From Boswellia sacra (Eukaryota; Streptophyta; Magnoliopsida; Sapindales; Burseraceae): a stretch of 64,000 nt of DNA. Positions 1-64,000 of this stretch are shown here, piece after piece. Both the position numbers and the translations under genes were made by a program. The stretch spans positions 29,193 to 93,192 of the forward strand of contig SNVD02014654.1 of the NCBI GenBank assembly GCA_013180625.2, read 5' to 3'. Below the pieces are notes generated by a model, which was given only the letters and a program-made list of their open reading frames with translations, was not told the DNA's origin and searched no databases. Position 1 is the first letter of the stretch. Every line of letters begins with the position of its first letter.

Positions 1-155
1 AATTGATCAGGTTTTATCTCTCTTTGCCATTTGTCTCATTTGCTTTGTTGTTTGTTTTTGACTTTCATTTGCTCTTATGTTTTTATTTCTTTTATGTGTC
101 TCTATTTTCTTTTCTTTTCTTTTATTTTCTTTTCTTTTGTTTAATTTGATTATTC

Positions 156-278
156 CGTGCTTCGAGTTCAGTTGTGCAACAGCTTGAGGAAACATTCAAA
201 CGGGAGTTGAAGCCATTGTCCGAAGGTTTGAAACGTGCATATCTGGGAGAAGAACAAACTCAATCGCATTATCAGTAA
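156..278 (+). pseudogene. Remnant of gypsy pol linker between protease and reverse transcriptase
   Basis: The frame at 156-275 reads through residues ELKPLSEGLKRAYLGE and stops at TAA 276-278. Athila/Tat-lineage polyproteins carry a closely similar Leu-Lys-Pro-Leu-Pro ... Tyr-Ala-Tyr-Leu-Gly-Glu motif just upstream of reverse transcriptase. The RT domain that should follow is missing and unrelated sequence begins, so this looks like an internal deletion or replacement point. The T-rich stretch at 1-155 shows no coding signal. Confidence 0.6.
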
Positions 279-301
279 TATCTCTCCTTTTTTCCTTTTC
301 A

Positions 302-931
302 ATGGATGCTGATATCTTTCTGTCAAACCTTCGTAAATATTTCCCTTCACTTCCTCAAAATGCTGTGTTTAAAATTTATAAAGTACGGATGACTAGACTT
401 TGGGAATTGATGCTCCTAAATGTGCCTGCTGATATCCGATGGCTTATCGAAGCCAAGGTGAGATTGTCCGGTGAGCCGGACATTAATCTCGCAAAATAAT
501 GCCTGGTCTAGGAAAGAGGTACTACGCCAAGAGGCGAAGAGCGAAAAGGTTACAAGTATATTATAAATGTGCTAGATGGAATTGTAACCAGACTTGTCGT
601 TCATTAGGTTTTGCGTCCAGGAATAGAGAAGATAAAACTTTCATTTATTAAGAATGGTTTGAGTAATGAGTCGCTGGATAATGTTTTGTTAACTCTCGAG
701 TCACATTCTTGTGGACTTGTTCAGCGTGAATTGCTTAATCTATGGACACAATTTCGTGATGACTTGCAGTGTTATAGTCTAGGGAATCTGACTAAAAACG
801 ACCCTGTTTGCCAGTTTATAAGAAAACTGGATGGGAAGCAAATCCCCGACTCATATAAGGCGTTTCAGCCGTTACTGGACGTAAAACCAGAGGAAGATGT
901 GAGCCACAATCACAACTACTTGTACATTTGA
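302..931 (+). CDS. Unrecognised two-exon coding-like region inside the retrotransposon
   Basis: Two open stretches in the same frame can be joined. The first starts at ATG 302 and reads to AAG at 457, followed by a good donor (GTGAGA at 458). The second starts after an acceptor (ATTAG ending at 607) and runs from 608 to 931. The 150-nt gap contains a stop and is flanked by GT/AG in phase 0. The product of about 160 aa is rich in Leu, Lys and charged residues (LRPGIEKIKLSF, LVQRELLNLWTQF). I recognise no family. It could be a captured host-gene fragment with its intron, or a lineage-specific extra ORF of the element. A third exon after a possible donor near 890 is not excluded. Confidence 0.35.
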
Positions 932-1084
932 ATGTGTTGTTGTTGTTGAATTTTATTTTTTTTTCTTGTTTCGTTTGATCTGATTATCAATGTTGTTTTT
1001 GTGTTGTTGTTGTTTGTTGATTTTGTTTGTTTTAATTTCAAGTTTCTTTTTGACAAACCATATGACTACCCTATGGCATAAGTA

Positions 1085-1345
1085 CACGTGGGAGACAAGT
1101 GTGGAGGTTTTGTCAACCTCCACCGAAAGTGTATCTCTATTTTTTATGCTTAATGTGGGAGACAAGTGTGGGGGTTTTGTCAACCCCCGCCGAAAGTGTA
1201 TCTCCATTTTCCATGCTTCACGTGGGAGACAAGTGTATAGGTTTTGTCAAACCTCGCCGAAAGAATATCTCATTTTTTTAAATCTTGGGGCGATAAATCT
1301 GCATCGAGCAACCCCCACCGAAAGTATGTCCCCATGTGTCAAAAT
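1085..1345 (+). repeat. Tandem 67-bp repeats, each containing a hairpin
   Basis: Three clear copies start with GTGGGAGACAAGTGT at 1088, 1155 and 1222, an exact 67-bp period; a fourth, degraded copy lies at about 1285-1345. Copy 1 holds a perfect 9-bp stem with a 5-nt loop: GTGGAGGTT (1101-1109), loop TTGTC, AACCTCCAC (1115-1123). Copy 2 keeps the stem with changed bases: GTGGGGGTT (1168-1176) against AACCCCCGC (1182-1190), so A-T became G-C and T-A became a T-G wobble. Copy 3 has a shorter stem (AGGTTT/AAACCT, 1239-1254). In all three copies GAGA upstream can pair with TCTC downstream, enclosing an internal loop with CCGAAAG. Function unknown. Confidence 0.85.
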
Positions 1346-1373
1346 TTGAGAGTGTTATGGGTGTATATATACA

Positions 1374-1381
1374 TTCTGCAT
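1374..1381 (+). promoter_or_regulatory. Possible TATA box of the LOG ORF
   Basis: TATATATA lies 88 bp upstream of the LOG start codon, between the hairpin repeats and the ORF. The distance suits a plant core promoter with a 50-60 nt leader, but the window is AT-rich and such strings arise by chance. Confidence 0.35.
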
Positions 1382-1468
1382 ATTTTCATATGTCATTCCA
1401 TAACCTGTCTTGCAATTGAAAAGCATAATATCTAACGTGTCTTACACAAGATTAGAGCACTTGTAGAA

Positions 1469-2119
1469 ATGGAGAAAACACCAATTCGGCGATTCCGCAA
1501 TATATGCGTATTTTGCGGATCGCAATTTGGTAAAGATGGAGAGTTTACCACAGCAGCTCTTGATCTTGGTAGGACATTAGCTGCGAGGGGTATTAATTTG
1601 ATTTATGGAGGGGGTAGTCTTGGGTTAATGGGGTGTGTGTCAACAGCTGCATCCCTAGGAGGGAGCAAAGTTCTCGGCATTATCCCTAAACCATTAGCTG
1701 TACGAGATATCGTAGGCAACACAATCGGGGAAGAGTTACAGGTCTCTAGTATGCATGAGCGTATTGCACATATGGTTGTTAAGTCCGATGCATTTATAGC
1801 TTTGCCGGGTGGTTATGGTACATTAGAGGAGATATTTCAAATCACCTATTGGGCACAGCTAAACATCCATCGGAAACCCATTGGTTTGTTAAATGTTAAT
1901 AATTTTTTTGATGGTTTGTTGTCCTTTCTTGATCAAGCTGTAGAAAAAAATTTCATCTCACCGTCAGCAAGGCAAATGCTGGTTACAGCTTCAACTGCAG
2001 GAGAGTTAATTGACAAACTACAAGAATTCGTCTATTCACCTGATCCAACAATGGCTCGGATAAATTGGTTTGGAGAAGGCAACAAAAGGCGTCAACTGGA
2101 TTTAACCCTCCATCTGTAA
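1469..2119 (+). CDS. Cytokinin riboside 5'-monophosphate phosphoribohydrolase (LOG-like), intronless
   Basis: LOG enzymes release active free-base cytokinins from their nucleotides by cleaving off ribose 5'-phosphate, in cytosol and nucleus. This 216-aa ORF has the full family length (usually 210-230 aa). Visible motifs: CVFCGS at 13-18, the nucleotide-binding glycine loop GGGSLGLMG at 47-55, MHERIAHM with Arg98, and the signature PGGYGTLEE at 113-121 with its catalytic Glu; no stop or frameshift. The C-terminus (KRRQLDLTLHL) looks like the complete tail of one LOG subgroup. ATG 1469 is the first in frame before the conserved core. Plant LOG genes normally have several introns; this one has none, pointing to an mRNA-derived copy. 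It lies inside an LTR retrotransposon, upstream of the polypurine tract, so it could move with the element. No poly(A) or target duplication marks a separate retrocopy. Whether it is expressed is unknown. Confidence 0.93.
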   Translation: MEKTPIRRFRNICVFCGSQFGKDGEFTTAALDLGRTLAARGINLIYGGGSLGLMGCVSTAASLGGSKVLGIIPKPLAVRDIVGNTIGEELQVSSMHERIAHMVVKSDAFIALPGGYGTLEEIFQITYWAQLNIHRKPIGLLNVNNFFDGLLSFLDQAVEKNFISPSARQMLVTASTAGELIDKLQEFVYSPDPTMARINWFGEGNKRRQLDLTLHL

Positions 2120-4070
2120 TCTCTATTTGCTGGTTTGCTTCGTTTTTGTTTGCTTTCTTTTTAGTGTGTTTATTTGAGATTTTTCATGTCGTTTCTTTTG
2201 AGCTTTTTCAGGTTATTTCTTTCGTCCCAGGTAATATTTTCTAATCTCGGTTTTTAGAGTGGTGGCTTAAAAAGTTCAAGTTCTCTTGAAACGCATTCTG
2301 GATCTCTTCAATCCATAATGGCTGAATAAGGAGGCTAACTTCTAAACTTTTTAGACCCATTCTAACTAACTTGTTTTTGTTTGCTGACTTGTTGAACTTT
2401 GTTATTTTATGAGTGAGTTTAGTTTTGCGTAATTTAGAGTTGTTATGTGTTTTTATCTTTATCAGTTTTGATTTAAAAAAAAAAACAATTGTGGAAAAAC
2501 CTGAGAATGGCAGAATATGGGGTTTCTTTAACCCTTGAAACGCATTCTCTCTAAATAAATCTGTAGTTTGTTTAGTTCATGTTATTTGAAGTGTCTTGTT
2601 TCTTGTTTTGTTCTTTCATAATAAAGGTATATAGGCTGGAAACCTTAAGTTTGCGGGCTACTGGTCCTAAGGATTGTTGAAATATACAATCTTGACTCAG
2701 GTATAACAACGCCACGTACCTCTTTTCTTGCATTTTGTGGGTCGATGATAAGATAATGATTGAATTAAGAATAACTCTTGGAAAATGATAAATGATGCAT
2801 GGATCTGTGTGCTTGAAATGTTTATTAGTTTTCGCTCTGCTTTTGCTTCCTTGCGCAACATTGAGCACTGAGCTATTATCACTGAGTTATTTGTTCACTT
2901 AGAAAAGTTTATGTAATTTAAATGTTTCTTCAGATTTCAATGAATTCTAGAACTTGTTTGATGGTCACTCGAGGCGAAATCCTAGAATGTGCAACATTGG
3001 GGAAATGATTTAGGCCATCTTTGGACCGTTTGAGCCTTAATAGCCAACCTTAACTGAAATTGATCCCTAGTTACCCCTTTGAGCCTTTGTAAGCCTTTTT
3101 CTTTGTCTCACTAAAATATTTCCTAACCTCAAATGAATTTATTCCAAATAGTTTATCCCTTACCTATGAGCATGTAGATCGTTCATAATTAAATTTTGAG
3201 CTATGTTCTGGTTTTGGGAAGTTAGAGGAGGTTGGGATGTGTCATGAGCAATACAAGTGAGTTCTATTGTGTTTTAAAAAAAAAAAAGAGAAAAACAAAA
3301 AAAAAAACCAATCTGTACTTATCGTCCACGTACTTACACATTGAGGACAATGTGTTGTTTAAGTGTGGGGGAGGGGAAGTGTAATAAAAAAAAAAAAGAG
3401 AACAAAAGAAAAAGAATAAGAGATCTATACCCTTAAGTGTTCTTTAAAAGAATGAAACAACAAAGTGTGGGGGTGTAGTTTTCTTTTGTTTTCTGCAAAA
3501 AAAAAAAAAAAGATTGAGTGTTCTAAATAAGTTTGGGGGAGTAACCTGGTGAATTGAAATGAAGTTGTGTTATAGGGTTGAGCTCTACATAGTCTTGAAT
3601 GATTTATGTGTTTGTGGGTGATTTGAGCCAAATTATTATCCTTTATCATACCTTCACCCAAGCCAAACGTTACAAGCTTAATAAAGTCCTACTTGATCCT
3701 TGGTGTTGTGCATGTCTACATTAGTGGAGAGTGACTTGAAAAGCAGGCCTATGGAGTTCATTTATACACACATCTTCAATATTAAATATGATTCATTTTT
3801 ATGCATAAACTCATCCGGGTTACAAGTGATTAGGTGAGAATGGCTCTACACACACACACTTGAGGAATTGAAGTGAAGCGAAACTAATCTTTGAGATAAA
3901 ATTCTTGATCAAGTGCATTATTTTGAAGTTTTCCTTGGGTTATAATTAAGTACAATCTTTGAGGCCTATTTGCAAGATGAAGCATTTGTGTGTTTTAATT
4001 TTTTTTGATTCTGTTTCGGTTTAGTTTTATTTCATATTGTCGTAGTTGCTCGAGGACTAGCAAAGTCTAA
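2120..4070 (+). other. Noncoding 3' internal region of the gypsy element
   Basis: No coding frame is convincing here. The stretch has poly-A runs (2474-2485, 3276-3307, 3386-3400, 3496-3511), phrases such as TTTGAGCCTT (near 3028 and 3077) and repeated G-rich tracts (AGTGTGGGGGAGGGG near 3361, AGTGTGGGGGTG near 3462, GTTTGGGGGAG near 3531). The phrase CATTGAGGACAATGTG followed by a GTGTGGGGG tract is typical of the region upstream of the 3' LTR in Athila/Tat elements. Confidence 0.7.
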
Positions 4071-4083
4071 GTGTGGGGGAATT
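4071..4083 (+). promoter_or_regulatory. Polypurine tract of the gypsy element
   Basis: GTGTGGGGGAATT directly abuts the TG start of the 3' LTR. This is where plus-strand DNA synthesis is primed in LTR elements. Confidence 0.8.
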
Positions 4084-5495
4084 TGATAGGTGTCTATTTA
4101 TATATCATTTTCATATCAATTCGTCCATGTTTCTTTGCTATATTCCTTGGTATTTTTATGTTTTTGTGTGGTTTTTGATGTTTGTAGGAGTTTTGGAGGA
4201 ACTTACACAAAATTGGAGTAAAACCCTTCATTTTCACCTCTGCTAGTCAACCAATTTCTTGGAGTTGATTGTATCGATATACAATTAACCGGATAACATG
4301 CTATATACCATTGAAAAGCTCTCGAAGTCTATTTTCTGGAGAAATTTACGGTTCACGAATTTATGTAGTGTACCGAAAGTTGTGATAAAAATGGTATGAG
4401 AAGTGTATATGTAATTCCATATATCACTGTAGCATGTATAATACGGGGCACTGTAGCAAGTTACTGTAGCAGAGTATTTAAACACATTTTAGGGTTTTAT
4501 TTTCAAAACTTGAAGAGGGGAGAACGTGGTAGAGGCTGCAGCTCTGGAATTCTTTCATCTCTTGGAGTTCTTGAAGGAGAAAGGAAGCTTGGAAAGAGGA
4601 AGAACTACAATCCAAAGAGAATTACATCAAATTTGCTAAGTTTTTCCCTTCCCTTTCATTTTCTGGAATGTCTCCATGTTGTATTGTATTTACCACGTTC
4701 TTAAACATGTGTAACTGAATCTGAATTGGTTGAGGGTGATTTCAAAGCCCCTGATATGGTTTTTGTAAGTTGATTGTGCAAGGAAGTTGTTATCCAATTC
4801 TCTAATTGAAGTTGCTTGTATTTTCCCATATCTAATGCTTATGATTGCTTGCTGATTGTATTTGAATGGCCAACTGAATATAATCTGGTTGTTGTCTATT
4901 GCTAGACTAGAAATCTTGATCCGTAATTGTCTTGAATTTCTAATCCTTAGTAGCAAAATTGTGATCAGATATTGCAATTGGAGAATACAACCTAAGTTAA
5001 ATAATCCGAGCTTGTGTGTTTATTGCTTAGATCAACCTATCTTTCTTATCGTAATGCATCCATTGAATTAAATTTAGAGAGCTTGTTCTAGGTTGTTTAA
5101 TGGATAGAGATTAAATAAAGAGCCTGTTTTATTTAACAACAAAGTAAGGAAAGATTGGGATAACAGAGCTTGTTGTTATCTATGGTTGATAATTTCAATG
5201 GTGTAATTGGATGACAATTCTACAATTAATTCGCAAATCCATATCTTGTGGTAGAGAAGGATCCCTTAACCAGGTTTCTCTCATTGATTTTTCAATCTGT
5301 TTTAATTTGCATTGTGTTATTCTTTACTTGCATTAATATTTCATCAAGTTAATCAATCAACAAAACCCCCCTCATTTAGTTTATTATTGCTTTCGAATAA
5401 CAAATTCAATTAGAATCAATCCTCGTGGGAACGATATCTTACTCATCACTTTATTACTTGTGCGACTAGTATACTTGCTAGTTTCGAACGCATCA
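4084..5495 (+). repeat. 3' LTR of the LOG-carrying gypsy element
   Basis: It starts TGATAGGTGTC and ends CGAACGCATCA (TG...CA), 1412 bp. It aligns over its whole length with the LTR at 61182-62589 and parts are almost identical (compare 5069-5255 with 62159-62344). A TATA-like TATTTAAA at 4475-4482 follows three copies of CTGTAGC within about 45 bp, the likely U3 promoter. The 5-bp target duplication cannot be tested because the 5' LTR is outside the window. Confidence 0.88.
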
Positions 5496-7328: not shown

Positions 7329-9695
7329 ATGTCTACATCCAGTGGAAATGATCAACCTACTTATAATGATGATGTGCCAATGGAAGAAAATGAAATGGAG
7401 CAAGATATTGAGGACAACATGGTTGATGTTTTGGTTGAGGATGGATTTACAAGAAATTCACAAACAGGACGCGGGAAAATACGACCACCAGTTGGTCGTA
7501 GCACTCGTTGGCGTGGACCACGAGGTGGTGTCACAAAGAGAAAGGAGGATCGTCAACCAATGAAACGGTCTTGGGTCTGGGAACATTTTACAAAAGAAAT
7601 TATTGAGGGCAGACATAAAGCTATTTGTAACCATTACAAAGCTGCATTGGTTGGTCACCATACAGATGGAACCAAACACTTGGCAAGCCATTTAGGAAGT
7701 TGTAAGAGTCGAAAACAAGCAACAATTAAGAAACAATTCTTGAGTTTTCAAAAGAAGCAATATGGAAGTAATTCATCAAAAATGGTTTGTTGAGACATTT
7801 GATAAAGACGTTTGCGAGGAAAAGGTGGCCAAAATGATTGTAATGCATGAACTCCCTCTTTGTGTTATTGAGTATGAGGGTTTTAGGGAGTTAATGTATT
7901 ATGCTCAACCTTTGTTTGTTCCCATGAGTCGAAACACTTTAAGGAATGTGGTCTTTAAGATATATGATATTGAGAAGGAAAAGACCATGAAGATGATGGA
8001 TGCTTGTAAGAGTAGAATAGAAATAACAACTGATATGTGGACTGCAAGTAATAACAAAAAGGGATACATGTTGTGACAGCACATTTCATTGATGAGCATT
8101 GGAGATTACAAAGTCGTATCTTGAGGTAAATATATCATATATGAGACATGCTAATATCATACATTTAAAAGAAAAAGACTTAATTTCTTAATTACTAACT
8201 AGTGTTTGACCTTTACTATTGAATATGTTTTAGGTTCATATATGTTCCATCTCCACACACCGCTAAAGCACTTGCTGATGAGCTAGCTCCTTGTTTGATG
8301 GATTGAAATGTTGCTCGTAAGTTGTCATGTGTTACTCTTGACAATTGCTTTACTAATGATGCATTGATTCCTATACTGAAAGAAAAATTGGGTGTTCATA
8401 ACATGATTTTGAAAGGAAAATTATTTCATATGAGGTGCACATCACACATTTTGAATTTGATAGTAAGAGATGGGTTAGATGTGCTTGGAGATGGGATTGA
8501 TAAAATTAGAAATAGTGTCGCCTTTTGGTCTGCTACACCTAAAAGAATTGAGAGATTTGAGAGTGAAGCACGACAAATGAAAGTTTCTTGTACAAGAAAA
8601 TTGGCAGTAGATTGTTGCACTAGATAGAATTCAACTTATTTGATGTTGTCTACTAATTGGAATATAGAGATGTGTTTACTCGTTTGCATATGCGTGAAAA
8701 AAGTTACAGATCTTTACCTATGCATTCAGAGTGAGAGTTGGCAAGGTTGATGTGTGACCATTTAAAGTATTTCTATAAGGTGACCCCAGTGACCCCAGTG
8801 TTTTCAGATACAAGATATTCCACTTCCAACTTGTTTTTTGCTTTAATTTGTGACTTAAGATTGGCATTGACTAAATGGTGTGATTCTCCTCATTCTAAAA
8901 TAAAAGAGATGGCATCACAAATGATAGAAAATTTTGAAAAGTACTGGGAGGTCATTATGGTGTTTTGGCAGTGGCTGCGATCTTGGATCCAAGATATAAA
9001 ATGCAATTGATCACATTTTTCTTTCCAAAAATTTATGGAGACAATGCTTCAAAGTATGTTGGAGATGTCAAAGACATTGTTTATGACTTAGTAGAGGAGT
9101 ACAAACTTAAAGCTGCCACTGTAGGTATAGGTGAACAAGATAAGTCATTAGCAAGTGAGGTTCTTATGAGTGGTGGGTTGGAAGATATGACCTTTGAGTC
9201 CAACTTAGAGTATCAATCATACATTGGTTCAACTAGTAATACAGTTACTAAGTCTAAGTTAGATTTGTATTTGGAGGAACAATGTTTGAAGCACACTAGT
9301 GGCCATTTTGATATTTTGAGTTGGTGGAACACAAATGTAGGCAAATATCCTTTGTTGGCTGAAATTGCAAAAGATATTTTGCCTATTCCAATTTCTACTG
9401 TGGCTTCTAAGTCTGCATTTAGTACGAGTGGTAGACATTTAAGTCCCCATCATAGCAAACTACATTCAAAGACATTGGAAGCTTTGATGTGCACTCAGAA
9501 TTGGTTATGGGCTCAGTCACGTGGTATTATATTCTCTTCAATGTTCAATCTATATTTTATGATATATGGATATTTCTAATACCTTTTCTTTCCTTTTTTG
9601 TTTTCCTAGGAATGATTCCTGAGTATGAGTTGGTAACAGTAGAAGAAACAGTGTATGATGAGGATGAAGAGCCATTAGAACTATCGACATCGTAA
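7329..9695 (+). pseudogene. hAT transposase (BED zinc finger / RNase H-like / hATC dimerisation), broken
   Basis: Pieces in order: an acidic N-terminus with a basic RGKIRPP...RWRGPRGG patch (7329-7560); a BED-type finger (SWVWEHF ... HLASHLGSC) whose second cysteine is Tyr (CNHYK, near 7630); the RNase H-like core (ITTDMWTASNN near 8025, CVTLDNCFTNDA near 8328); and the C-terminal hAT dimerisation domain (FDILSWWNTNVGKYPLLAEIA near 9310). Likely introns are 8126-8233 and one ending near 9609. Breaks: frameshifts near 7770, 8070 and 8960, stops TGA near 8304 and TAG 8625-8627 where Trp is expected, and Lys for Glu in the usually conserved ASESAF motif. The family excises and reinserts DNA; this copy cannot. 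Confidence 0.9.
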
Positions 9696-9964: not shown

Positions 9965-10440
9965 TTGCGGTAGATCCACTCGACACTCAACACTTACATG
10001 TCGAGTCGTGTCGGATTCACAACCGACACTCGAAATCAGTCTATTTTTGAAGACATCGAGTATCGGATGCATAACACTTACATGTCGAGTCATGTCAGAT
10101 TCACAACCGACACTCGATATCAGTATTTTTTAAGACATCGAGTGTCGAGTGTCAGATGTGTCAAATGCATCATCTGACACTCGACACTTACATGTCGAGT
10201 TGTGTCGGATTCACAACCGACACTCGATATCAGTCTATTTTTGAAGACATCGAGTGTCGGATGATGCATCTGACACTCGACACTTACATAACGAGTCGTA
10301 TCGGATTCATAATCGACACTCGATATCAGTATTTTCAAAGACATCGAGTGTCGGATGCATCGTCCGACACTCGACACTTATATATCGAGTCGTGTTGAGC
10401 TCTATCGAGCGCATCGAGTTTTGTCGAGCGTTTTGGCAGG
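9965..10440. repeat. Right subterminal repeat array of the hAT element
   Basis: About twenty copies of CGACACTCGA-like motifs in both orientations. Longer units of roughly 110-130 bp, each with ACATGTCGAGTCGTGTCGGATTC-like text shortened here to its core GTCGTGTCGGATTC, alternate with CATCGAGTGTCGG. Open frames of 80-90 codons on both strands across this array are by-products of the repeats. Confidence 0.8.
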
Positions 10441-51699: not shown

Positions 51700-53515
51700 G
51701 ATTTAACAAAATTATTGTATCATGTTACAGTTTTATGTTTTCTATTGTATTTTATTGTGATTTGTCACGAGTTTCATGTTTAATTTTACAAGTTAATAGT
51801 TAGGTTTTATAAGTTCATCTTTTCGTGTTACAAGTCCTCATATGATTGTAAATTGAAGATTTGATTTTACTAGTTTTAGGTATTATGTTACAACTTTTAT
51901 ATTTCTTGTTTGAATCTTCGTTAACCTTGTTACGAGTTTCATGTTTTATTTTACAAGTTAACGTAGGGCTTTACAAGTTCATCGCTCCTTGTTATAAGTC
52001 CATGTATGATTCCAAGTTGAAGATTTGATTTTACTAGTTTTAGGTGTCATGTTGCAACTTTTATGTTCATTGATACCAGCTTGGATAACCTTGTTGCGAC
52101 TTTCATGTATTATTTTACAAGTTAACTTTGGGTTTTACAAGTTCATCGTCTCATGTTACAAGTCCACGTATGATTGCAAGTTAAATGTTTGATTTTACTA
52201 GTTTTAGGTGTCACATTATAATTTTTATGTTTTTTGTTTCAATCTTGGTTAACTTTGTTGCGACTTTCATGTTCTATGTTACAAGTTAACGCTAGGTTTT
52301 ACAAGTTCATCATTCCGTATTACAAGTCCATGCATGATTTCAAGTTAAAGGTTTGATTTTACTAGTTTTAGTATCATATTGCAACTTTTATGCTCCTTGT
52401 TACAATCTTGGTTAACCTTGTTGCAAGTTTCATGTTTTATTTTATACGTTAACGTGAGGTTTTGCAAGTTTATCATTATATGTTACAAGTCCACATATGA
52501 TTGCAAGTTGAAGGTTTGGTTTTACTAGTTTTAGGTGTCATGTTGCACCTTTTATGTTCTTTGTTACAATCTTCGTTAACCTTGTCGCGAGTTTCATGTT
52601 GTCTTTTACAAGTTAATGTGAGACTTTGCAAGTTCATCATTCTATATTACAAGTCCACGTATGATTGCAAGTTAAAGGTTTGATTTTACTATATTTATGT
52701 GTCATGTCGCAAATTTTATGTTTCTTGTTGCAGACTTGGTTAACTTTGTTATGAGTTTCATGTTGTATTTTACAAGTTAACGTTAGGTTTTACAAATTTA
52801 TCATTCCGTATTACAAGACTACATAAGATTGCAAGTTGAAAGTTTGATTTTACTGGTTTTAAGTCTCATGTTGCACCTCTTTATGTTTATTTTTACCATT
52901 TTGGATAACCTTGTTGCAACTTTCATGTTTTATTTTAAAGTTAGCATTGGGTTTTACAAGTTTATCATTCTGTATTACAAGTCCACATATGATTGCGAGT
53001 TGAAGGTTTAATTTTTCTAGTTTTAGGTATTATGCTGTAACTTTGATGTTCCTTATTATATTCTTGATTAACCTTATTGTAAGTTTCATATTGTGTTTTA
53101 TATGTTAACATTAGGTTTTACAAGTTCATCATCTTGTGTTACAGGTCCACATATGATTACAAGTTAAAGTTCTGATTTTACTTTTAGATGTCATGTAGCA
53201 ACTAAGATTTTCTTAATTAAAACTTTGATGATCCTTGTTTCAAATTTTATATTCTATTTTACAAGTAAATGTTATTTTTTACAAGTTGATCGTTCCGTGT
53301 AACAAGTTTACATTTAGTTACATGTTTAGGGTTTTTAATTTGCTACTTTTTGGTGTTAGACTATGACTTCAATGTTGGTTGATACAACTTTGGTTAACTG
53401 TTTTGCAGATTTTATGTAATATTTTACAACTAAACTCTATGTCTAACAAGTTCATCATTTCTTATTATTGTCTTATTTGATTACAAGTTTAAAAATTTGA
53501 TTTTACTAGATTTAA
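51700..53515. repeat. Satellite array, about eleven 164-bp monomers
   Basis: The landmark TTGATTTTACTAGTTTTAGG recurs at 51861, 52025, 52189, 52352, 52516, 52680, 52844, 53008, 53172, about 53335 and 53497, a period of 163-164 bp with very few indels. Monomers diverge by roughly 10-20 percent by eye, most at the right edge. Each monomer contains shorter internal echoes of TTACAAGTT (for example TTTTACAAGTTAAC, TTTTACAAGTTCATC, TTACAAGTCCA, GCAAGTTGAAG), suggesting origin from a unit of 20-30 bp. Open frames at 52501-52683 and 52829-53011 are by-products. The array stops at a MITE. Confidence 0.93.
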
Positions 53516-61181: not shown

Positions 61182-62589
61182 TGATAGGTGTCTATTTATG
61201 TATTACTTTTATATCAATTCGTCCATGTTTCTTTGCTATATTCCGTGGTATTTTTATGTTTTTGTGTGTTTTGATGTTTGTAGGAGTTTTGGAGCAACTT
61301 GCACAAAAATGGAGTAAAACCCTTCATTTTCACCTCTGCTAGTCAGTGATCTTCTCGGATTTAATTGTATTGATATACAATGAACCCGACGACATATTAT
61401 ATACCGTTGGAAAGCTCTCGAAGTCTATTTTCTGGAGAAATTTACGGTTTATAAATCCATTCAGTGTACCAAAAGTTGTAATCAAAACAGTGTGAGATGT
61501 ATAGAAATATAATTCCACAAGCACTGTAGCATGTATAATACGGGGCACTGTAGCAATCACTGTAGCAGAGTATTTAAACACATTTTAGGGTTTTATTTTC
61601 ATAACTTGAAGAGGGGAGAACGTGGAGGAGGCTGCATCTTTGGATTTCTCTCATCTCTTGGAGTTCTTGAAGGAGATTGAAGGCTTGGAAAGAGGAAGAA
61701 CTACAAATCCTAAGAGATTTCATCAGATTTGCTAAGTTTATCATTCCCCTTTCATTTCTGGAATTGCTATGTATTGTATTGTATTTATGACATTCTTGAA
61801 CATGTGTAACTGAATCTGAATTGGTTGAGGGTGATTTCAAAGCCCTTGATATGGTTTTTATGAGTTGATTGTGCAAGAAATTGTTATCCAATTCTCTAAT
61901 TGAAGTTGCTTGTATTTTCCCATATCTAATGCTTATGATTGCTTGCTGATTGTATTTGGAATGGCCAACTGAATATAATCTGGTTGTTGTCTATTGCTAG
62001 AGTAGAAATCTTGATCCGTAATTGTCTTGAATTTCTAATCCTTAGTAGCAAAATTGTGATCAGAGATTGCAATTGGAGAATACAACCTAAGTTAAATAAT
62101 CCGAGCTTGTGTGTTTATTGCTTTGATCAACCTATCTTTCTTATCGTAATGCATCCATTGAATTAAATTTAGAGAGCTTGTTCTAGGTTGTTTAATGGAT
62201 AGAGATTAAATAAAGAGCCTGTTTTATTTAACAACAAAGTAAGGAAAGATTGGGATAACAGAGCTTGTTGTTATCTACGGTTGATAATTTCAATGGTGTA
62301 ATTGGATGACAATTCTACAATTAATTCGCAAATCCATATCTTGTGGTAGAGAAGATCCCTTAACCAGCTTTCTCCCATTGATTTTTCATTCAAATTTACT
62401 TTCTGTTTTGTTATTCTTTACTTGCATTCTTATTTCATTTAGTAAAGCATTCAACAAAAATCCCCCCCTGTTTAGTTTATTGTTGCTGGAAATAACAAAT
62501 TCAATTAGAATCAATCCTCGTGGGAACGATATCTTACTTATCACTTTATTACTGTGCGACTAGTATACTTGCTAGTTTCGAACGCATCA
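61182..62589 (+). repeat. 5' LTR of the second gypsy element
   Basis: TGATAGGTGTC ... CGAACGCATCA, 1408 bp. TATTTAAA at 61571-61578 follows three CTGTAGC copies, as in the other LTR. Confidence 0.9.
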
Positions 62590-62595
62590 AGTTTT

Positions 62596-62613
62596 TGGCG
62601 CCGTTGCCGGGGA
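62596..62613 (+). promoter_or_regulatory. Primer binding site, tRNA-Asp
   Basis: TGGCGCCGTTGCCGGGGA is complementary to the 3' end of plant tRNA-Asp including CCA. It lies 6 nt after the LTR. Athila/Tat elements commonly use this primer. Confidence 0.92.
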
Positions 62614-62703
62614 TTGATTTTCTAATCGATTTGTTATTTTTGTTTTCATTGTTGATTCATATTTTCTTTGTTTTTCTTTTCTGATTGTTTGTGTTTAGAC
62701 AAC

Positions 62704-63477
62704 ATGGCAGTAAACTTCTATCAATTCAGTAGCGGATTTGAGCCACAAGTGCCATGGAGAGTAAATGAGGTAAGCACTCCGAACATTGAACAACAACTTT
62801 CTGAGCTAACCTCTCTTGTGGAAAACATGGCTGTAGGAGATATGCAAAAATCTTATGAATGTGGGATATATTCTACGATGGAGCATCCAATCGACATGTA
62901 TCCAACTTTACAAGAAGAATATATGGAACAAGCCAATGCCATGGGTGGATTTCCAGGACAAACGAGGCAATGGTATGATCCTTTCTCTAGCACTTACAAT
63001 GCTGGATGGGAAGATCACCAATATAATTTGAGTTTACTAGAATCATCAAACCATCACTCCAATGTGATACCAAATCGGCCACAAGGTTTTAATCAACCTA
63101 GAATGTAGCAACCATTTCAAATGCAACCACCACCAATGCCATAACCAGCACCACAAACAGCTCCAGAAAACTCAGGTATGTCACTCCAGGATATTGTTAA
63201 TGCACTTGCCACTAACACAATGCAATTCTAGCAGGAAACTGGGGCAGATATCCAAAACCTGGCAAATCAAATGGGATAATTGGCCACTAGCATAAGCAAA
63301 TTCGAGGGCCAAGGCTCAGAAGAATTATCTTGTCAAACGATGATCAATCCAAGAGAGAATTCTTGTGCGATAACTTGGCAAAATGAAGAGCAATTAGATG
63401 TCCTGCCAAAGAAATCACAAACTGATGAAGGAGATGACACCACTTCCACCATGAACAAAACACTGACTTCTCAGTAA
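62704..63477 (+). pseudogene. Gypsy gag, C-terminal part, four premature stops
   Basis: One frame from ATG 62704 runs to 63477, interrupted by stops at 63106, 63142, 63229 and 63277. Each sits where Gln fits the family pattern: TAG before CAA, TAA in the MP-PAP run, TAG in MQF-QET, TAA in MG-LATSISK. The visible text (QWYDPFSSTYNAGWEDHQYN, MSLQDIVNALATNTMQF, NPRENSCAITW) is the C-terminal third of Athila/Tat gag. The main gag domain is missing between the start and this part, so an internal deletion must have occurred as well. Confidence 0.85.
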
Positions 63478-63714
63478 TCCTATAACTCCCATTCCTTCCT
63501 AATGTTTCTCCTCCACTTTTTCCTAGTAGATTTGCACAATCGAAGGAGAACACAAGAACCAGAATCCTGACTTCTCACCAAATCGAGGTAAATATACCAC
63601 TTCTGGATGCTATGACACGTACCTCGTTGTACAAAATTTCTCAGAGTTAAGTGCACTCAAAAAGAGAAAGTTGAAGGGATGAGAAGGTAAGTGTGGGCGA
63701 ATATGTTTCAGCTG

Positions 63715-64000
63715 TATTGCAAAGAAAAATTCCTCCGAAATGCAAAGATCCAGGTACGTTCACCATTCCATGCACTATTGTAATACCAAGTTTGAAAGAG
63801 CTATGTTAGATTTAGGAGCATCTATTAATGTCATGCCATATTCTATTTATGCTTCTTTAAATCTTGGACCTTTTGCGAAAAACTGGTATTACCATTCAGT
63901 TTGTTGATCATTTTAATGCATATCGCAAAAGAGTTGTGGAAGATGTGCTTGTGTAGGTGAATCAATTGGTTTTCCTAGCAGACTTCTATGTCCTTAAAAT
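63715..64000 (+). pseudogene. Gypsy aspartic protease region, broken
   Basis: KIPPKCKDPGTFTIPCTI (near 63730) is followed by a frameshift, then ERAMLDLGASINVMPYSIYA (near 63790-63850) with the Asp-Leu-Gly-Ala active-site motif. A further frameshift lies near 63870, and a TAG near 63956 sits where the family has Gln. The frame runs out of the window. Confidence 0.8.

What the first reader, a model, noticed from the sequence alone, without database searches (positions are those of the whole stretch)
1..5495. An intact LOG cytokinin-activating ORF carried inside an LTR retrotransposon
The sequence shows a complete 216-aa LOG ORF with all signature motifs, no introns and no breaks, lying between a gypsy pol remnant and the polypurine tract/3' LTR of the same element. 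Known: host LOG genes are intron-rich, and retrotransposons occasionally carry host-derived ORFs. Inference: a spliced LOG transcript was captured, so the element could spread a hormone-activating enzyme in many copies. The ORF is intact although pol is gone and related elements here are full of stops, which suggests recent capture or selection.
Basis: partly seen in the sequence, partly recalled or inferred. Interest (0 to 1): 0.87.

Follow-up and report, generated by a model that had tools for sequence, protein, structure and literature searches.

The report
Retrotransposon's own selected LOG-like enzyme
A plant retrotransposon carries, in at least 144 stop-free copies in this genome, a gene related to the plant's own hormone-activating LOG enzymes; the copies bear the marks of selection for the protein, but two residues of its predicted substrate pocket have changed, so it likely no longer does the plant's job and would instead serve the element.

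Summary
The ORF at 1469-2119 is real: an intronless 216-aa LOG homologue between integrase and the polypurine tract/3' LTR (4084-5495) of a Ty3/Gypsy element. This copy's RT, RNase H and integrase lie just left of the window, so pol is not gone; two other copies share one 2.64-kb pol deletion and keep LOG. The 150 scored matches in the genome are 95-100% identical; 144 have no stop. In 109 aligned copies, variants shared by 5 or more copies are 37 synonymous to 12 nonsynonymous, singletons 81 to 148; neutral simulations with the same ascertainment do not give this. So the ORF is selected in the transposing lineage. It is not recent: similar proteins of several plant orders form one clade (100/100) apart from host LOGs. 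The catalytic Arg and Glu are kept, but two pocket residues, Lys and Glu in 120 of 120 host-type LOGs, are Ile and Gln. I infer one old capture of a LOG7-like mRNA whose product later changed base specificity. LOG in Gypsy elements was already reported (Citrus, poplar). Enzyme activity, copy number and an ascertainment-free sample remain untested.

The parts
1..1468 (+). Spacer between integrase and LOG, with broken ORF pieces (about 303-494 and 611-931) of no known family
   Evidence: Matches the same stretch of L032 and L034 at 93-94%; no Pfam match for 611-928 nor for the longer L034 ORF that covers the 303 stretch; no codon-position pattern in 303-494
1088..1288 (+). Three tandem copies of a 67-base unit upstream of LOG
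   Evidence: family D9 (copies 2 and 3 are 88% and 75% like the first)
1469..2119 (+). Intact 216-aa LOG-family ORF, stop codon included
1751..1774 (+). Codons 95-102 (MHERIAHM): adenine/prenyl-side motif, catalytic Arg98 kept, pocket Lys replaced by Ile99
   Evidence: residue roles from PMC4979012 sections 6 and 7
1805..1852 (+). Codons 113-128 (PGGYGTLEEIFQITYW): nucleotide-binding motif kept with catalytic Glu121; pocket Glu replaced by Gln124; Trp128 kept
4069..4083 (+). Polypurine tract
   Evidence: read; same sequence before the 3' LTR of L035
4084..5495 (+). 3' LTR (TG...CA)
61182..62589 (+). 5' LTR of a second element of the family, cut by the contig end
   Evidence: 91.3% identical to the first LTR; read
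62596..62613 (+). Primer-binding-like site behind the second LTR
   Evidence: read; the tRNA it would pair with is recalled, not tested

Best explanation
The 216-codon ORF is an accessory gene of a multicopy Ty3/Gypsy (probably Athila-like) retrotransposon that bears the imprint of purifying selection, likely descends from one old capture of a spliced LOG7-like host mRNA, and is predicted to work as a nucleoside-5'-monophosphate phosphoribohydrolase whose base pocket has changed. Shown: its place between integrase and 3' LTR; near-identical copies across the genome; selection on variants shared by copies and near-neutral singletons; fold predicted with high confidence; catalytic pair kept; on the tree one loss of the pocket Glu, and one loss plus one regain of the pocket Lys, inside the clade. 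Inferred: it is translated from element RNA; it takes the base off a nucleotide other than the usual N6-prenyl-AMP, or with other preference, and so clears or converts nucleotides to the element's gain during replication; pol-deleted copies that keep it are moved by pol-bearing kin.
For: Same place in three elements read, one with a 5-base target duplication ATAGC on both sides. 150 of 150 scored places at 95-100% identity, 6 with a stop. 109 of 110 fetched copies aligned: variants in 5 or more copies 37 synonymous, 12 missense; in 2-4 copies 47 and 32; singletons 81, 143 and 5 nonsense; Fisher p 3.6e-7 and 2e-4. dN/dS 0.18 over 105 stop-free copies, 0.12 in 1409 pairs with dS above 0.1. Codon-position diversity 0.0143, 0.0102, 0.0488, the last like the flanks. 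Neutral simulations with the same picking give 2.2-3.1 nonsynonymous per synonymous at like divergence, against 0.32 seen. Host LOGs have introns. One clade, 100/100, on the LOG7-like side. Pocket Lys 12 of 120 and Glu 11 of 120 in window-like proteins, 120 of 120 each in host-type ones; catalytic Arg 112 and Glu 115 of 120. Loss counts with those columns masked. Model pLDDT 89.7, best match AtLOG3.
Against: Copies were picked by likeness to this protein; the sample picked by flank DNA could not be run. In the first 30 loci diversity rises with distance from LOG, as picking and recombination would give. Catalytic Arg is lost in 8 and Glu in 5 of 120 relatives, so some may be dead or not enzymes. 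K and E losses do not prove a new substrate; no activity or expression was measured. The window copy itself has a rare Tyr at 127 (2 of 109 copies; Ser in 107). That relatives in other species sit in elements was not seen here. No RT tree was made, so 'Athila-like' is by recall.
Confidence: 0.66

Rival explanations
1. The element carries a working cytokinin-activating LOG that raises active hormone in the host cell and so gains dividing cells or the germ line.
For: Fold, PGGYGTLEE, catalytic Arg and Glu, and Met95, His96, Trp128 of the pocket are kept. Early-branching relatives (Xanthoceras, Acer saccharum, P0036, P0037) keep Lys and Glu as well.
Against: Lys and Glu of the pocket are Ile and Gln here and in 108-109 of 109 copies. 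In C. glutamicum LOG, alanine changes of the AMP-binding residues, Lys100 among those listed, nearly abolish activity (PMC4979012 section 6).
Confidence: 0.2
2. The protein is no longer an enzyme but a nucleotide-binding or structural helper of the element.
For: Some relatives have lost catalytic Arg (8 of 120) or Glu (5 of 120).
Against: Both are kept in most relatives (112 and 115 of 120) and in 108 and 107 of 109 copies in this genome.
Confidence: 0.1
3. A passenger: recently captured and spread by chance, with no selection on the ORF.
For: Top copies are young-looking, and the copies were picked by LOG likeness; diversity rises away from LOG.
Against: Shared against singleton variants, simulations and codon-position pattern; deep clade across plant orders.
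Confidence: 0.03
4. An ordinary host LOG gene with an LTR element beside it.
For: None found.
Against: Same ORF in at least 150 places, before the same polypurine tract in three elements; host LOGs with introns exist apart from it.
Confidence: 0.01

Closest known systems
YgdH/LOG-domain Gypsy elements of Citrus sinensis, C. clementina and, unfiltered, Populus trichocarpa (PMC9289625, passages and section 12 read; it cites Steinbauerova et al. 2011, not held)
   Same: LOG-family domain inside Gypsy-type LTR elements of plants
   Different: That section gives the domain's occurrence only; selection, single origin, pocket change and a pol-deleted form are added here for this genome. Whether the Citrus proteins fall in this clade was not tested.
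Orchid Gypsy elements with an AlkB-type RNA demethylase ORF (PMC9289625, abstract and passages)
   Same: Host-derived enzyme kept as an extra ORF through element multiplication
   Different: Other enzyme, activity shown in vitro there; none measured here
[quoted passage not shown]
   Same: Place and sense orientation of the extra ORF
   Different: Those third ORFs are described as env-like or without similar genes outside elements; this one has a clear enzyme origin
Plant and bacterial type-I LOG enzymes (AtLOG3 2a33, AtLOG8 1ydh, C. glutamicum 5its/5zbl)
   Same: Fold, PGGxGTxxE motif, catalytic Arg and Glu
   Different: Two pocket residues replaced; intronless; carried by an element

Membership tests
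LOG family (PF03641, type-I LOG) | Sequence and fold of the family | tested here: met
   PF03641 E 1.2e-38; AtLOG3 first by sequence and by model
LOG family (PF03641, type-I LOG) | PGGxGTxxE motif with catalytic Arg and Glu | tested here: met
   Arg98 and Glu121 present; roles from PMC4979012
Cytokinin-activating plant LOG enzyme | Pocket residues Met, His, Lys, Glu, Trp as in AtLOG3 and OsLOG | tested here: not met
   Met95, His96, Trp128 kept; Lys is Ile99 and Glu is Gln124
Cytokinin-activating plant LOG enzyme | Releases cytokinin from its ribotide | not testable with these tools
   needs an enzyme assay
Ty3/Gypsy LTR retrotransposon | LTRs, primer site, gag, PR-RT-RH-INT in this order, polypurine tract | tested here: met
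   Domain order in L031; LTRs and primer site in L032 and L034; no single copy shows all parts: the pol-bearing copy's 5' end was not seen
Ty3/Gypsy LTR retrotransposon | 5-base target duplication | tested here: met
   ATAGC on both sides of the C2331 copy; not testable for the window copy
Athila lineage | RT falls in the Athila clade | not tested
   No RT tree made; likeness of LTR end, primer site and protease is recalled

The most novel reading that the evidence does not exclude
A retrotransposon lineage took a LOG7-like gene once, early in the history of the core eudicots, and rebuilt its base pocket into a new nucleotide hydrolase that serves the element: an enzyme class kept alive by transposons rather than by hosts, and retained even where an element has lost its polymerase.
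Probability: 0.4. Interest if true: 0.82.

Novelty: new variant of a known kind. Interest (0 to 1): 0.66.

Why it matters
It would be a plant case, testable at the bench, of a host metabolic enzyme that became a long-term part of a retrotransposon and changed specificity there. It also matters for annotation: three poplar proteins of this clade (P0044, P0056, P0118) are named 'probable cytokinin riboside 5'-monophosphate phosphoribohydrolase LOGL10' in source records, so element genes may be counted as hormone genes.

Tried and rejected
Host gene beside an LTR: rejected. LOG in the second element of the window: apart from the ORF itself the window holds no LOG match better than E 1.9; that element is cut by the contig end. 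Own promoter for LOG: the TATA-like stretch near 1364 shows no dip in diversity and the scan is for bacterial promoters, so no claim. Viral contigs: 4 loci with relatives of 34-43% identity, not followed. LTR divergence of the C271 copy (0.174) discarded: its 3' LTR is cut short and flank was included. Family search of 303-497 failed on stops. The flank-DNA sample and two copy counts did not complete. Papers: of the searches, the only paper I saw that names LOG or YgdH in Gypsy elements is PMC9289625; one search also listed a mungbean genome paper (PMC11670757) that I did not open, and of the 10 listed (27 found) and 3 I opened only PMC7264820 (passages).
Full report
What is there. The window begins inside a Ty3/Gypsy element on the + strand. 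At 1469-2119 lies a 216-aa ORF of the LOG family; at about 4069 a polypurine tract and at 4084-5495 an LTR that starts TG and ends CA. A second LTR of the family (61182-62589, 91.3% identical) opens another element on the same strand, with a primer-binding-like site and a broken gag start; the contig ends with the window. L031, the 10 kb left of the window, holds a weak protease match (E 0.0012, below the family cut-off), RT (RVT_1 1.2e-27), RNase H (1.1e-36) and integrase (rve 3.5e-17) in this order, in ORFs that end at 9346, with one more ORF to 9657. The copy's 5' end was not seen: left of L031:5261 the likeness to the family stops, and what lies there looks, by recall, like the end of a Copia LTR.

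Other copies. Two further elements were read in pieces (L032/L033 on C271 and L034/L035 on C2331). Both have a 5' LTR, a primer-binding-like site, gag and protease stretches, then the same breakpoint that removes L031 7216-9859 (2.64 kb, RT to integrase), then spacer, LOG, polypurine tract and 3' LTR. The C2331 copy has ATAGC on both flanks, a 5-base target duplication, and LTRs that differ by K2P 0.041. The C271 copy has a 3' LTR cut short. So part of the family is pol-deleted and presumably non-autonomous. With three elements read, the share of each form is unknown.

Number and state. The genome search scored 150 of 14777 first-look candidates; all 150 match at 95-100% identity, 149 over 216 residues and one over 215; 6 have a stop, 144 none. 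True copy number was not obtained.

Selection. I compared 110 of the 150 places (30, 80). One (L076, three bases longer) was dropped; 109 were aligned; 4 of them hold one stop. Variants seen once: 81 synonymous, 143 missense, 5 nonsense. In 2-4 copies: 47, 32, 0. In 5 or more: 37, 12, 0. A neutral ORF of this make-up would give about 2.3-3.1 missense per synonymous. Singletons against 5+: Fisher p 3.6e-7; against 2-4: p 2e-4; copies are related, so these are rough. Over 105 stop-free copies mean dS is 0.070 and dN 0.0128 (ratio 0.18; 0.12 for the 1409 pairs with dS above 0.1). Diversity by codon position is 0.0143, 0.0102, 0.0488, the last within the range of the 300 non-coding bases on each side (0.015-0.088 per 25 bases); in the first 30 loci a same-length frame downstream gives 0.032, 0.039, 0.044 and the frames at 303-494 and 611-928 give no such step either. 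Because copies were picked by protein likeness, I simulated neutral families with the same picking (9 settings, 6 runs each): in the three settings nearest the observed divergence the 5+ class has 2.2-3.1 nonsynonymous per synonymous; the lowest in any setting was 0.93 (29 variants, far lower divergence); observed 0.32. Against this: in the first 30 loci diversity grows with distance from LOG, as picking and recombination would give, and a sample picked by flank could not be run.

The protein. AlphaFold with 43 rows gives pLDDT 89.7; Foldseek ranks AtLOG3 first (E 2.0e-26, rmsd 0.6 over 178 columns). In C. glutamicum LOG, Arg99 and Glu122 are the proposed catalytic pair; Met96, Lys100 and Glu121 hold adenine; Met96, His97, Lys100, Glu125 and Trp129 are the inferred prenyl site; alanine changes of these AMP-binding and catalytic residues nearly abolish activity, Ser19 excepted (PMC4979012, sections 6 and 7). 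The window ORF keeps Met95, His96, Arg98, Glu120, Glu121 and Trp128, but has Ile99 for Lys100 and Gln124 for Glu125. Among the 120 best matches to a host LOG, Lys and Glu stand in 120 of 120 each; among the 120 best matches to the window ORF, Lys is kept in 12 and Glu in 11, catalytic Arg in 112 and catalytic Glu in 115. Both are top lists, not random samples. In this genome's 109 copies Gln124 stands in 109, Ile99 in 108 (Met in 1), Arg98 in 108, Glu121 in 107.

Origin. A motif pattern finds 15 host LOG places and 0 in the reversed control; their loci show exon breaks near LOG3 residues 32, 64, 75, 108, 132 and 179, some loci being partial or with altered motifs. The element ORF has none of these introns, so a spliced RNA was taken. 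Trees: 47 window-like rows and 37 host-type rows lie on two sides of a 100/100 branch (its bootstrap had not settled); with 17 LOG7-like proteins, 41 window-like rows again form one side with 100/100, and the branch attaches next to two LOG7-like monocot sequences with moderate support (88/83 and 84/84). The clade holds named proteins of Xanthoceras, Acer, Melia, Reevesia, Diplodiscus, Pterospermum, Populus, Rehmannia, Primulina and Paulownia (names), that is Sapindales, Malvales, Malpighiales and Lamiales (orders recalled). With the two columns masked, Glu changes once and Lys twice (one loss, and a regain in P0042) on the tree. Rows that keep both (Xanthoceras, Acer, P0036, P0037, P0038) lie outside the group that lost them. 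One old capture followed by loss of the two residues is the simplest history; spread between species is not excluded. That the other species' proteins are element-borne was not seen here; clusters with many members (such as 327 for Pterospermum) point that way.

Host. The nearest host LOG matches (95%: Dipteronia, Mangifera, Gossypium) suggest a rosid; not pinned further.

Known and new. A 2022 screen of 121 angiosperm genomes reports the YgdH/LOG domain in Gypsy consensus sequences of two Citrus species and, unfiltered, of poplar, and cites a 2011 report (PMC9289625 section 12). From memory, the 2011 abstract speaks of two Athila-like elements with LOGL4 similarity; that paper is not held. 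So LOG in a Gypsy element is known. In the searches I saw no report of selection on it, of one shared origin, of the pocket change or of a pol-deleted form that keeps it; most hits were seen as listings only.

Mechanism. Shown by sequence: an element-borne, selected LOG-family ORF with kept catalytic pair and changed pocket. Inferred: translation from element RNA, removal of the base from some nucleoside monophosphate, gain to the element. The gain could be nucleotide clean-up before reverse transcription, by likeness to dUTPases in other retroelements (recalled), or a hormone effect on the host cell if cytokinin ribotides are still used.

Noticed in passing
window 61182-64000: Second element of the same LTR family, same strand, 5' LTR with primer-binding-like site and a gag start with stops; cut by the contig end.
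   Followed up: partly
window 51711-53467: About ten tandem copies of a ~164-base unit, 60-84% alike, AT-rich satellite-like array (families D1 and D2).
   Followed up: no
window 7329-9579: ORFs that look, by recall, like pieces of a hAT transposase with a BED zinc finger.
   Followed up: no
window 9982-10393: Short repeats of about 90 bases with GACACTCGACAC motifs (families D5 and D11).
   Followed up: no
L118, L123, L126, L129: Four host LOG loci read GYVT or RYVT where other LOGs have GYGT in the nucleotide-binding motif; perhaps decaying duplicates.
   Followed up: no
P0044, P0056, P0118 (Populus): Named LOGL10 in source records but lack the pocket Lys and Glu and group with the element ORF; possible element genes named as hormone genes (P0044 and P0118 also in the trees).
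   Followed up: partly
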